Shown here in pieces: positions 1,434 through 5,857 of a DNA stretch of 52,540 nucleotides (within the stretch, counting starts at the first letter, position 1; each line of letters begins with the position of its first letter). The stretch is from an uncultured Nitratifractor sp. (GTDB lineage Bacteria; Campylobacterota; Campylobacteria; Campylobacterales; Sulfurovaceae): NCBI GenBank assembly GCA_913054475.1, contig CAJXJF010000003.1, positions 1-52,540 of the forward strand, given 5' to 3'. The notes under the pieces are model-generated. The model was given only the letters and a program-made list of their open reading frames with translations. It was not told the DNA's origin and did no database searches. The position numbers and the translations under genes were made by a program.

Positions 1434-2486
1434 TCAGTTTTTCTGCTGAACTCTATCTTCTCTCACATCCTTGAAGAGTGATTCGAAACTGCCTTTGAGT
1501 TTCTCGTAGAGTTTTTCGACCATATTCTTGCCTTTTATCTCATCCTCTATCGCATCTATCTGTTTCTTCAAAGAGGCATAGGCCTGCGAATGTTTGCCCG
1601 TATAGCCGAGAAGTTCCGCTCTTTTGAGCTGCTCTTTCGCCATCTCGAGTAATTTGAGAGCGTCATCCTTCTTGTTCTTGTCGATTTTGGAAGCCTCGTT
1701 CACCATATCGGCAGCGAGCATTAGAGGTATGGGAGTTACCTCTTTTACCGTTATGAATGTAGCGAAGCCCTGTATCAATATCGCGAGTGCCTCATCCTTT
1801 TTACCCGCCTTGAGGGCTTCCTGAGCCTTCTTAGTGGCTATAGGATAGATTTTCATAGGTATATATTGTGTGATGAAATCCATCTCATCCTGCAGAGGCA
1901 GCACGATATCTCTCGCATCCTGCGTTCTCTTCTCTTTGAGCAGTTTTCCCGCTCTCTCTATCGCCTCCTCGATGATTTTGGAGTCTCCTGCGAATGTCTT
2001 TATATTTATCTGCATCGCCAGAGGCACCAAATCGAGGGAGGGGTCCGCTTTGAGCACCTTCTTGAAATCCTTGGAAGCTATCTCCAGATTTTTGGCGGCA
2101 TCGTCAACTTTACCAGCTTTTATGGCCTGAGCCGCTTTGATACTCATATCGATAGCTTCCATTATCTCCTTGGGAGCCTTCTGGATACCCTTGTGCGCGG
2201 ATGCTTCACTCGCGAAGACCCTCTGCAATCTCGCGGCCCTCGCCGCTTTGGTATTAGCTTCGAGATTCCCAGCCTTCGTCTTGGCTTCGGACTTCTCCTT
2301 GGAGTTCGCCTCTTGCACTTTGGCTTTGGCCGCCGTTTCAGACTTGGGCGCAGAAGAGTTGATCACTACTTGGGCTTCCTTTTTCGCCACACTCTCTTTT
2401 GTCGTATTTTCGGCATTTAGAGCGCTTATGCTGCCTATGAGCAAAACCCCTGCTACCGCTATCGAAATTCCAATTCTCTTTTTCAT
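1434..2486 (-). CDS. YfdX-family exported protein
   Basis: I place the start at 2486, not at the ORF-track start, because GGAAAGGAAG precedes this ATG at good spacing and the protein then opens with a signal peptide (MKKRIGIS...LNAEN). A low-complexity Ala/Lys/Glu linker follows. The YfdX domain comes next, with ADPSLDLVPLAMQ and PLQDEMDFITQYIPMKIYPIA as characteristic stretches. The family consists of periplasmic helical proteins of poorly known role, linked in enterobacteria to acid or stress responses. It lies 73 bp after the glucan phosphorylase gene in the same direction and may share its transcript. Confidence 0.7.
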   Translation of the reverse strand: MKKRIGISIAVAGVLLIGSISALNAENTTKESVAKKEAQVVINSSAPKSETAAKAKVQEANSKEKSEAKTKAGNLEANTKAARAARLQRVFASEASAHKGIQKAPKEIMEAIDMSIKAAQAIKAGKVDDAAKNLEIASKDFKKVLKADPSLDLVPLAMQINIKTFAGDSKIIEEAIERAGKLLKEKRTQDARDIVLPLQDEMDFITQYIPMKIYPIATKKAQEALKAGKKDEALAILIQGFATFITVKEVTPIPLMLAADMVNEASKIDKNKKDDALKLLEMAKEQLKRAELLGYTGKHSQAYASLKKQIDAIEDEIKGKNMVEKLYEKLKGSFESLFKDVREDRVQQKN

Positions 2487-2559: not shown

Positions 2560-4212
2560 CTATTGTGGAAATTGATAGTTGTAGAGTTTTTCGTAATACT
2601 CTTTTACCATTCTCGAAGATGAGAAGTAGGACAATATATCGTTCATACCGTTTTTCGCTATCTTGAGCCACTCATCCTCTCTGTCGTAGTAGAGAGGCAG
2701 TATGCTCTTTTCCAGCTTCTGCATCATATTTTCGTAATCTATTCTATCTATCTCATCGTTTGGCAAAGAGGGGTCGGCGTGCTCTATCGTGAAGGAGTTT
2801 ATGCCATCCTCTTCGAATTCAGCATGCCAGCCGTCATCTATGGAGAAGTGTACCGAAGCGTTGATACCGGCTGTCATTCCGCTCGTGCCGCTCGCCTCTC
2901 TTCCCCATCTCGGAGTGTTGAGCCAGAGGTCGGAGCCCTGTTTCAGCATCTTGGAGAGTCTCAGCTCATATCCGGTCAGTACTGCGACATTGGAGAATTC
3001 CCGACTCATCCTCACCAAGTCGTTGAAAGCCTCCACCACTTTGTAATCCAGAGGATAGGGCTTGCCCGCCCAGATAATCTGTACCGGATATTCGCTATTG
3101 GCTATCAGTTTTCTGAAGCGCTCCATATCGTAGGTCAGAAGCCATGGTCTCTTGTACTGAGCGAATCGTCTCGCCCAGACGATGGTCAGCACATTGGGAT
3201 CGAAGAGTTTTCCGGTCTGGTCGGCCACCTCTTCGAAAAGTTTATGTTTCAGATGCTTCTTGCGCCCTACAAGCTGATAGTCTTCATGTTCGAACATCCA
3301 GTTCAAAAGCTCTTTGTCTGCCCAGTATCTCATATTCTGAGCGTTCGTGATACTGATTATCTCACATCTGCCCTCCACATCCTTCCACATCTCGTTGGAG
3401 ACTTTTTCGTGTATCTTCGATACAGCATTGGCTCTTTTGGCCGTCTTGAGGGCACCGACGGTCAGGGAGAACTTTTCGTCGTAGTAGTCGAGTCTCTTCT
3501 GCACTTCACCAGCGGAAAAACCGTTGAAAAAGCCCATCCTCTCCAGCATATATATATTGTGCACCTCGTTGCCGGCCATCTCGGGAGTATGTGTCGTGAA
3601 GACTATATGCTTTTTCAGCTCCTCTATATCCTCGTAGCGCTTCATCAGCTCGAATACCAGAGGCAGGGCGTGCCCTTCATTCAAATGGTAGATATCTATA
3701 TCCACTCCCATCTTCTCCAGCACCCTCACACCGCCAATACCCAGAACTATCTCTTGGGCGACTCTCGTCTCTTCGTTGGCGTCGTAGAGTTTGTGGCTTA
3801 TCGTGCGTGAGAGATGGTCGTTTTCGAAGAGATCGGTAGTGAGCAGAATGACTGGAGCGCTCTCGAAGACTTTCGCGGGAAGCAGATAGGCTTTCACCTT
3901 GACGGGTTTGCCGTTTATCTGTACCTCCACCGTAATGCCGGTCTCTTCGAGAAAGTAGTAGAACTTTCTCCTGAAATCGACTTTGAGTGTATTGTCCTCG
4001 TGCCTGCTCTGGTCGTAATATCCGTAACTCCAGAGCATACCTATACCTATGGTATGCTGTCTCTCATCGTTTACACTGCGCACATGCGAACCGGCGAGAA
4101 AGCCGAGCCCACCCGCATATGTCTTGAGAGACTGCTCTATGGCAAACTCCATCGAGAAATAGGCCACACTCTTTTTGTACTCTTCATCTATCTCGTATGG
4201 AAAGAGCTTCAT
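2560..4212 (-). CDS. glgP: Alpha-glucan phosphorylase homologue (GT35), PLP lysine replaced
   Basis: The 550-residue protein matches the short alpha-glucan phosphorylase type, with SVAYFSMEFAI and TYAGGLGFLAGSH at the start, YHLNEGHALP and TTHTPEMAGNEVH in the middle, and WARRFAQYKRP further on. GT35 enzymes phosphorolyse glycogen or maltodextrin to glucose-1-phosphate using pyridoxal phosphate held by a lysine in EASGTSxMK. Here the motif reads EASGTSGMT, with Thr447 (codon ACA at 2872-2874) in place of the lysine. I recall related bacterial sequences with the same change, so it may define a clade and not a defect. The start lies 7 nt after the stop of pgm, consistent with joint glucan turnover. 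Confidence 0.85.
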   Translation of the reverse strand: MKLFPYEIDEEYKKSVAYFSMEFAIEQSLKTYAGGLGFLAGSHVRSVNDERQHTIGIGMLWSYGYYDQSRHEDNTLKVDFRRKFYYFLEETGITVEVQINGKPVKVKAYLLPAKVFESAPVILLTTDLFENDHLSRTISHKLYDANEETRVAQEIVLGIGGVRVLEKMGVDIDIYHLNEGHALPLVFELMKRYEDIEELKKHIVFTTHTPEMAGNEVHNIYMLERMGFFNGFSAGEVQKRLDYYDEKFSLTVGALKTAKRANAVSKIHEKVSNEMWKDVEGRCEIISITNAQNMRYWADKELLNWMFEHEDYQLVGRKKHLKHKLFEEVADQTGKLFDPNVLTIVWARRFAQYKRPWLLTYDMERFRKLIANSEYPVQIIWAGKPYPLDYKVVEAFNDLVRMSREFSNVAVLTGYELRLSKMLKQGSDLWLNTPRWGREASGTSGMTAGINASVHFSIDDGWHAEFEEDGINSFTIEHADPSLPNDEIDRIDYENMMQKLEKSILPLYYDREDEWLKIAKNGMNDILSYFSSSRMVKEYYEKLYNYQFPQ

Positions 4213-4219
4213 TTTGGAT

Positions 4220-5857
4220 TTATCCTTTTTTGGCGAATATTTTTTTGACTATCTCCACGGCATCGTTCTGGACCTGCCCGAGGTGCTCCCGAGAAACGAA
4301 ACTCTCCGCATAGATTTTGTATATATCTTCGGTGCCCGAGGGTCTGATGGCCGCCCATCCGTTCTTCGTCGTCAGCTTCAGGCCGCCGATGGGTGCTCCG
4401 TTGCCCGGTGCATTGGTGAATATTCCCGTAATCTTTTCACCGCCGAGCTCGTCGGCCTCTATATCCTGCGCTTCGAGCTCTTTGAGTATCCTCTTCTCCT
4501 TCGCATCGGCCGCCGCGTCTATCCTCCCGTAGTAGGATTTGCCGAATCTCTCTTCGAAATCGGCATATATCTCGGCTGGGTCTCTGCCGGTAACAGCTTT
4601 TATCTCCGCCGCCAGCAGTGTCATGACTATTCCATCCTTGTCGGTACTCCAGACTCCCCCATCCTTTTTGAGGAAGGATGCACCGGCACTCTCTTCTCCT
4701 GAGAAACCGAGCCACCCTTCGTACAGACCGTCGACGAACCACTTGAAGCCTACGGGCACCTCGTAGAGATCTCTACCCATATCCGCGGCCACACGCTCTA
4801 TCATGGAGCTCGATACCAGCGTCTTGCCTATCTTCAGGTCGCCACTCCACTCTTTTCTGTGGGAAAAGAGATACCAGATAGCGACCGCCAGATAGTGATT
4901 GGGGTTCATCAGCCCGCCGACGGGTGTCACGATGCCGTGTCTGTCCGCATCGGTATCGTTGGCAAACGCCAAATCGTATCTATCTTTGTAGGCCACCAGG
5001 GAGGCCATGGCGAAGGGCGACGAGCAGTCCATGCGTATCTTGCCGTCGTGGTCCAGAGTCATGAACGAAAAGGTCGGGTCGGCATAGTCGTTGAGTATAT
5101 CCATATCGAGGGAGTATCTGCTATCAATCTGTCGATAGACGGCCATAGCCGTACCCCCCAGCGCATCGGCGCAGAGTTTCAGACCGCTTCGGCCTATAGC
5201 CTCCATATCCAGAATCTCGTCCAGCGCCTCGACATATGGAGTCACGAAGTCATGCTTCTGCACCAGCGGACTCTCGATAGCCTCGGCATAGGAGACTCTG
5301 CGCAGACCCTTCATATCGGCTTCGAGTATATCGTTGGCCCGTCTCTGCACCCAGTCGGTCACATCGGTATCCGCAGGTCCTCCGTTGGGAGGATTGTATT
5401 TGAATCCCCCATCCCCGGGAGGGTTGTGGGAGGGAGTGATGACAATACCGTCGGCCCTCTCCCGCCCTTTTTCGTTGTGTCTCAATATGGCGAAAGAGAC
5501 CAGAGGTGTGGGGATATAGTCGTCGGATATTCTCACACTCACCCCATTGGCCACACAAACTTCCACCGCGCTCATCTGAGCCGGTGTAGAGAGTGCGTGA
5601 GTATCCTTACCTATATATATCGGACCAGCATAGCCCATCTTCTCGCGATATTCGCATACGGCCTGGGTGATGGCGAGTATATGTTTCTCGTTGAAACTCC
5701 CATCGAGAGAACTGCCTCTGTGTCCGGATGTCCCGAACGAGACTCTCTGGGAGCTTTCGGAAAGATCCGGCTCCAGTTCGTAATACGACGATACGAGAGC
5801 AGGGATATCGCAAAGCATATCTTTCGGAGCCTTTTCACCCGCCAACGGATGAGCCAT
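4220..5857 (-). CDS. pgm: Phosphoglucomutase (alpha-D-glucose-specific)
   Basis: The enzyme interconverts glucose-1-phosphate and glucose-6-phosphate. Its 545 residues are the usual length for this bacterial type. The substrate loop FGTSGHRGSS is near residue 42. The phosphoserine loop is ITPSHNPPGDGG, the metal loop is NDTDADRHG, the sugar loop is GEESAGASF, and the phosphate-binding loop RPSGTEDIYKIYAES is near the end. AAAAGGAGAAGAG precedes the ATG. The phosphorylase homologue follows 7 nt downstream, which fits a small operon that links stored glucan to glycolysis. Confidence 0.95.
   Translation of the reverse strand: MAHPLAGEKAPKDMLCDIPALVSSYYELEPDLSESSQRVSFGTSGHRGSSLDGSFNEKHILAITQAVCEYREKMGYAGPIYIGKDTHALSTPAQMSAVEVCVANGVSVRISDDYIPTPLVSFAILRHNEKGRERADGIVITPSHNPPGDGGFKYNPPNGGPADTDVTDWVQRRANDILEADMKGLRRVSYAEAIESPLVQKHDFVTPYVEALDEILDMEAIGRSGLKLCADALGGTAMAVYRQIDSRYSLDMDILNDYADPTFSFMTLDHDGKIRMDCSSPFAMASLVAYKDRYDLAFANDTDADRHGIVTPVGGLMNPNHYLAVAIWYLFSHRKEWSGDLKIGKTLVSSSMIERVAADMGRDLYEVPVGFKWFVDGLYEGWLGFSGEESAGASFLKKDGGVWSTDKDGIVMTLLAAEIKAVTGRDPAEIYADFEERFGKSYYGRIDAAADAKEKRILKELEAQDIEADELGGEKITGIFTNAPGNGAPIGGLKLTTKNGWAAIRPSGTEDIYKIYAESFVSREHLGQVQNDAVEIVKKIFAKKG

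What the first reader, a model, noticed from the sequence alone, without database searches (positions are those of the whole stretch)
2560..4212. Glucan phosphorylase homologue lacking the PLP lysine
The motif EASGTSxMK has Thr (T447, codon ACA) where PLP binds. Glycogen phosphorylases depend on this cofactor. The operon with pgm is intact and the protein has no stop or frameshift, so it seems to be used. It may be a PLP-independent glycosyltransferase or a regulator. I believe similar sequences occur in other bacteria, so the whole clade may be misannotated.
Basis: partly seen in the sequence, partly recalled or inferred. Interest (0 to 1): 0.5.

Follow-up and report, generated by a model that had tools for sequence, protein, structure and literature searches.

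The report
Glucan phosphorylase relative with relocated lysine
A glycogen-metabolism enzyme carried by two phyla of bacteria has lost the lysine that holds vitamin B6 in every characterised glycogen phosphorylase, and has gained an invariant lysine 23 residues earlier, so this whole annotated branch either holds the cofactor in a new way or works without it.

Summary
The ORF at 2560-4212 (-) encodes 550 aa with EASGTSGMT447 (codon ACA). The column aligns with E. coli MalP K646, the PLP lysine. All 83 members examined (Campylobacterota, Bacteroidota) have Thr, Ser or Ala there. All other GT35 proteins examined keep Lys, including a 709-aa paralogue in the same genome. In the tree the Lys-less group is one side of one branch, with a long stem. 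The protein is not decaying: it is under purifying selection, every other catalytic and phosphate-binding residue is conserved, and it sits in glycogen clusters. It tracks glycogen synthase (36 of 40 carriers against 8 of 60 non-carriers). It is the only GT35 found in 26 of 40 Campylobacterota and 15 of 16 Bacteroidota genomes.

It lies on a predicted helix of the cofactor-binding domain. My leading reading is an active alpha-glucan phosphorylase whose cofactor anchor moved to K424 or became non-covalent. A PLP-free enzyme is about as likely; a bare regulator is unlikely. I could not read the model's coordinates or run an assay, so the cofactor remains unproven. I found no characterised member in the papers searched.

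The parts
2560..4212 (-). CDS, 550 aa, GT35-like alpha-glucan phosphorylase homologue without the PLP lysine ('noK' clade)
   Evidence: TIGR02094 413.1 bits against cut-off 191.7; AF2 model pLDDT 87.4, best PDB match Segatella copri glycogen phosphorylase, TM 0.87-0.90 of the query
2872..2874 (-). Codon 447 ACA (Thr) where the PLP-binding Lys stands (MalP K646)
2941..2943 (-). Codon 424 AAA (Lys): invariant in the clade, V/T/I/L/Y in Lys447-type relatives; candidate relocated cofactor lysine
   Evidence: predicted helix 417-426
2896..2898 (-). E439, conserved catalytic Glu of EASGTS (GPb E672 / MalP E638)
   Evidence: 81/81 and 25/25
3151..3171 (-). R348-R349...Y353-K354: phosphate/PLP-phosphate ligands (MalP K534, R535, K540)
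   Evidence: R348 80/81 (1 Lys), R349 and K354 81/81; MalP roles in PMC11046441
3343..3345 (-). N290 (GPb N484), followed by clade-specific A291-Q292 instead of G-V/I
3589..3591 (-). H208 (GPb H377), glucose-binding His
   Evidence: 81/81
4220..5857 (-). pgm, phosphoglucomutase (alpha-D-glucose-1,6-bisphosphate-dependent), directly upstream
   Evidence: TIGR01132 839.9 bits, cut-off 778
1434..2486 (-). Downstream gene, signal-peptide-like N-terminus plus YfdX domain (start at MKKRIG inferred); link to the system uncertain
   Evidence: PF10938 E=8e-25; a 45% homologue lies near the long GT35 in G050 (L071)

Best explanation
It is a catalytically competent GT-B alpha-glucan enzyme of glycogen metabolism, most likely still a phosphorylase that feeds glucose-1-phosphate to the adjacent phosphoglucomutase. 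Its cofactor site was rebuilt once in a common ancestor: the Schiff-base lysine at 447 became Thr/Ser and a new lysine appeared at 424. I think it most likely that a phosphate-bearing cofactor, probably PLP, still sits with its phosphate on R348/K354/T443. It would be anchored by K424 from the neighbouring helix or held non-covalently, since in this fold type only the PLP phosphate takes part in catalysis. Shown: the loss, the K424 gain, the conserved active site, the glycogen context and the one-branch pattern. Inferred: phosphorylase activity, PLP binding and the role of K424.
For: Perfect exchange: T/S/A447 with K424 in 83/83, and K447 with non-Lys424 in every Lys-type sequence, including the nearest Lys-bearing row L127 (T424); no intermediate. 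The noK label needs one change on the tree, support 100, stem 1.43. GGLG loop, H208, N290, R349, Y353, K354, E439, S441, G442, T443 invariant; R348 (MalP K534, which coordinates the PLP phosphate, PMC11046441) is basic in 81/81, whereas GlgA has a non-basic residue there. S33, N432 and W297 are also kept. Only the PLP phosphate acts in this fold type (PMC9081730, PMC6411801). pN about 0.12-0.17 against pS 0.73-0.93 from the window protein to relatives. GlgA association 36/40 against 8/60. It is the only GT35 found in 26/40 Campylobacterota and 15/16 Bacteroidota genomes; in a 297-genome Bacteroidota sample noK (33) and Lys-type (166) never co-occur. Clusters hold pgm, pgi, GH57, GlgA, GlgB. 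Pontibacter noK lies beside type II GAPDH and DUF1622, genes that also flank Lys-type short GT35 on Indioceanicola and Methylophaga plasmids.
Against: No coordinates were available, so K424's distance to the site is unknown; the claim that its helix face borders PLP rests on remembered GPb geometry. Other pocket residues changed on the same stem (A291, Q292, G414, E416, S420, R438), which would also fit a different ligand. The clade scores better than Lys-type GT35 against a GlgA profile (median 28.6 against 8.0 bits). In 14 Campylobacterota genomes, the window's included, a Lys-type paralogue is also present, so there noK may do something different. Co-occurrence tests ignore shared ancestry.
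Confidence: 0.4

Rival explanations
1. PLP-free retaining phosphorylase: phosphate and glucose-1-phosphate bind directly, the cofactor's place being filled by K424 and other clade-specific side chains, as GT4 trehalose phosphorylases manage without PLP.
For: Lysine lost in all members and pocket residues S420, Q292, E416, G414 changed together; catalytic residues kept; GT4 and GT35 phosphorylases are both thought to use a front-face (SNi-like) mechanism (PMC8950772); it takes the place of Lys-type enzymes.
Against: R348, S33, N432 and W297, which I take to line the PLP site, remain conserved although a cofactor-free enzyme would be free to lose them.
Confidence: 0.25
2. NDP-glucose-dependent glucosyltransferase (glycogen-synthase-like): the nucleotide occupies the old PLP site.
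For: noK scores above Lys-type relatives on a GlgA profile and 14 of 18 members match TIGR02095 weakly; G414 and S420 resemble the GlgA GY..S pattern; clusters often contain an NDP-sugar pyrophosphorylase; 8 of 17 named carrier genomes lack a GlgA above cut-off.
Against: A full GlgA above cut-off is already present in 36 of 40 noK Campylobacterota and 9 of 17 other noK genomes; noK scores are far below the GlgA cut-off; the extra basic residue R348, absent in GlgA, is kept; mutual exclusion with Lys-type phosphorylases points to degradation.
Confidence: 0.2
3. Pseudoenzyme or regulator: a catalytically dead glucan-binding protein that senses glycogen or scaffolds other enzymes.
For: Loss of the cofactor lysine; in the window's genome an apparently complete Lys-type paralogue exists.
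Against: All other catalytic residues invariant in two phyla; the only GT35 present in most Bacteroidota carriers.
Confidence: 0.12
4. Sequencing or assembly error, or recent decay of an ordinary phosphorylase.
For: None.
Against: Same kind of substitution in 83 of 83 sequences from independent genomes, with purifying selection.
Confidence: 0.01

Closest known systems
Segatella copri glycogen phosphorylase (PDB 9l6i, 20yr; TIGR02094 type)
   Same: Best sequence and fold match (E=1.7e-69; TM 0.87-0.90 of the query); same catalytic motifs
   Different: 852 aa with N- and C-terminal extensions; keeps the lysine (EASGTSGEK); about 26-27% identity
Short Lys-type TIGR02094 proteins (L127, 575 aa; Simkania, Methylophaga, Indioceanicola, 564 aa)
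   Same: Same length and domain set; some lie next to pgm or DUF1622
   Different: K at 447; V or T at 424; G-V/I after N290
E. coli GlgP / MalP (GT35, TIGR02093)
   Same: GT-B fold; R, K, H, N, E and T catalytic residues align
   Different: About 800 aa; PLP on K646 (MalP); I at the 424 position; about 17% identity by structure alignment
Glycogen synthase GlgA (GT5)
   Same: GT-B fold, weak profile similarity, GY motif near the donor site
   Different: Far below the TIGR02095 cut-off; lacks the R348-type residue and the EASGTS motif
GT4 trehalose phosphorylase
   Same: Retaining GT-B-type phosphorylase that needs no PLP (my knowledge), so a precedent for mechanism only
   Different: Different family; not compared by sequence here

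Membership tests
TIGR02094 alpha-glucan family phosphorylase (sequence family) | Score above the curated cut-off | tested here: met
   413.1 bits against 191.7; matched by 18/18 members scanned
PLP-dependent glucan phosphorylase (GT35, EC 2.4.1.1) | Schiff-base lysine in EASGTSxMK | tested here: not met
   T/S/A in 83/83
PLP-dependent glucan phosphorylase (GT35, EC 2.4.1.1) | GT-B fold and conserved catalytic residues (GGLG, H377, N484, R569, K574, E672, GPb numbering) | tested here: met
   residues; fold
PLP-dependent glucan phosphorylase (GT35, EC 2.4.1.1) | PLP-phosphate ligands (MalP K534, K540) | tested here: met
   R348 (80/81, one Lys) and K354 (81/81); roles from PMC11046441
PLP-dependent glucan phosphorylase (GT35, EC 2.4.1.1) | Another lysine at the cofactor site | tested here: inconclusive
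   K424 invariant and exchanged with K447, but the distance was not measurable
PLP-dependent glucan phosphorylase (GT35, EC 2.4.1.1) | Bound PLP and phosphorolysis of alpha-1,4-glucan | not testable with these tools
   Needs protein
Glycogen synthase GlgA (GT5, TIGR02095) | Score above cut-off 328 bits | tested here: not met
   Best noK score about 60 bits; window 29 bits to a related GlgA model
GT4 trehalose phosphorylase | GT4 family membership | tested here: not met
   No GT4 Pfam match for the window protein at E 0.001; cited only as a mechanistic precedent

The most novel reading that the evidence does not exclude
A glycogen phosphorylase lineage that moved its PLP-anchoring lysine to another helix (K447 to K424), or gave up PLP while keeping phosphorolysis, and replaced the classical enzyme across large parts of Bacteroidota and Campylobacterota. 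To my knowledge either would be a first for fold type V PLP enzymes.
Probability: 0.5. Interest if true: 0.75.

Novelty: new variant of a known kind. Interest (0 to 1): 0.6.

Why it matters
Glycogen phosphorylase is a textbook PLP enzyme, and why it needs PLP at all has been argued over for decades. A natural, intact, widespread branch without the lysine allows a direct test of what the cofactor contributes, or shows how a cofactor anchor can migrate. Public annotation calls these proteins glgP, so metabolic models of these bacteria assume a PLP-dependent phosphorolysis that nobody appears to have tested.

Tried and rejected
Another lysine within the local loop or helix: none at 443-451 in any member. 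Short length as the cause: rejected, since about 564-aa Lys-type forms exist. Error or decay: rejected. Presence of a second GlgP-type enzyme in carriers: searched with TIGR02093 and TIGR02094 and absent in most. A GT3 glycogen synthase accounts for only 2 of 17 genomes. Literature searches for a PLP-less GT35 or a characterised member returned nothing on point. K424 geometry could not be read, because the structure tool returns no coordinates. Promoter and terminator scan was uninformative. Rfam found only a tRNA in the window.

Full report
Observation. The minus-strand ORF 2560-4212 encodes 550 residues with no internal stop. Residue 447 is Thr, codon ACA, in REASGTSGMT447AGIN. In an alignment with E. 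coli MalP and GlgP it falls on MalP position 646, the lysine reported to carry PLP (PMC11046441).

Not chance. Related proteins were collected from Campylobacterota relatives, GTDB species genomes and a Bacteroidota sample. 81 distinct sequences of this clade have Thr (57), Ser (23) or Ala (1) at the site; 25 related sequences plus E. coli MalP and GlgP all have Lys. Two more clade members from public plasmid records have Thr, and six further relatives have Lys. The window's own genome has a 709-aa Lys-type paralogue, EACGTSGMKAS, on another contig. Between the window protein and close relatives pN is 0.12-0.17 and pS 0.73-0.93, so the gene is under purifying selection.

Phylogeny. On a maximum-likelihood tree the Lys-less sequences form one side of one branch (support 100, stem length 1.43). 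The nearest Lys-bearing row, L127 (575 aa), joins just outside, but it is a long branch whose place is unsure. Short (about 564 aa) Lys-type proteins in Simkania, Methylophaga and Indioceanicola show that short length and lysine loss are separate things.

Active site. GGLG, H208, N290, R349, Y353, K354, E439, S441, G442 and T443 are invariant in the clade; R348 is basic in 81/81 and Y415 is kept in 80/81. R348 and K354 align with MalP K534 and K540, which coordinate the PLP phosphate (PMC11046441). The AF2 model (pLDDT 87.4, pTM 0.89) matches Segatella copri glycogen phosphorylase best, with other GT35 enzymes filling the rest of the displayed list.

The lysine exchange. The new finding is K424: Lys in all clade members and V, T, I, L or Y in all Lys447-type sequences, including L127 (T). 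It lies on predicted helix 417-426, and T447 lies on helix 443-449 of the same domain. From remembered geometry of rabbit phosphorylase, positions 420 and 424 correspond to A653 and I657 on the helix face beside PLP; this was not measured. Other stem changes (A291, Q292, G414, E416, S420, R438, P385) show that the whole donor or cofactor region was remodelled.

Biological role. Carriers have GlgA far more often than non-carriers: 36 of 40 against 8 of 60 Campylobacterota genomes, and GlgB 29 of 40 against 8 of 60 (relatedness not corrected). Neighbourhoods hold pgm, pgi, an NDP-sugar pyrophosphorylase/phosphomutase fusion, two GH57 proteins, a GalT-like protein, ROK kinase, GlgA and GlgB. In 26 of 40 Campylobacterota carriers and 15 of 16 Bacteroidota genomes no Lys-type GT35 was found. 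In 297 sampled Bacteroidota genomes 33 have the Lys-less form, 166 a Lys-type form and none both (counted by hand from the table; test; relatedness not corrected). GlgB is above cut-off in 15 of 17 named carriers, GlgA in 9 and GT3 synthase in 2. In Pontibacter the gene sits beside type II GAPDH and DUF1622, genes that also flank Lys-type short forms on Indioceanicola and Methylophaga plasmids. Together this points to the same job as a glucan phosphorylase.

Mechanism. In this PLP fold type the phosphate, not the aldehyde, takes part in catalysis (PMC9081730, PMC6411801). A phosphorylase could therefore tolerate a change of anchor as long as the phosphate stays in place. Retention of R348 and K354, of S33, N432 and W297, and the one-for-one appearance of K424 favour a retained, re-anchored or non-covalent cofactor. 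The GlgA-like shift (median 28.6 against 8.0 bits) and the remodelled pocket keep a PLP-free phosphorylase or an NDP-glucose enzyme open. A dead protein is unlikely given the conserved catalytic set.

Novelty and limits. I found no paper describing such a protein, but subscription journals are mostly not held. The protein belongs to the TIGR02094 sequence family but fails the defining cofactor test of PLP-dependent phosphorylases, so it should not be filed as one until assayed.

Noticed in passing
window 1434-2486 (-): YfdX-domain protein with a signal-like N-terminus directly downstream; a 45% homologue lies near the long GT35 in another Campylobacterota genome (L071:13384-14370), a possible recurrent partner of glycogen clusters.
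   Followed up: partly
L147:3947-6082: In Runella rosea the Lys-less gene is followed 30 bp later by a pyridoxamine 5'-phosphate oxidase family protein (a generic family name).
   Followed up: no
L147-L152; e.g. L148:2308-5638, L152:1-3674: Short GT35 genes ride on plasmids of several phyla, some beside type II GAPDH, DUF1622, CBS-domain proteins or pgm, which looks like a mobile glycogen or stress island.
   Followed up: partly
genomes G101-G116: Bacteroidota genomes encode about 270-aa proteins matching only the N-terminal half of GlgA, besides or instead of full-length GlgA.
   Followed up: no
L057:11552-14152 and equivalents: About 840-aa fusion of a sugar-1-phosphate nucleotidyltransferase and a phosphohexomutase in the Campylobacterota glycogen clusters; probable source of the NDP-glucose.
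   Followed up: no
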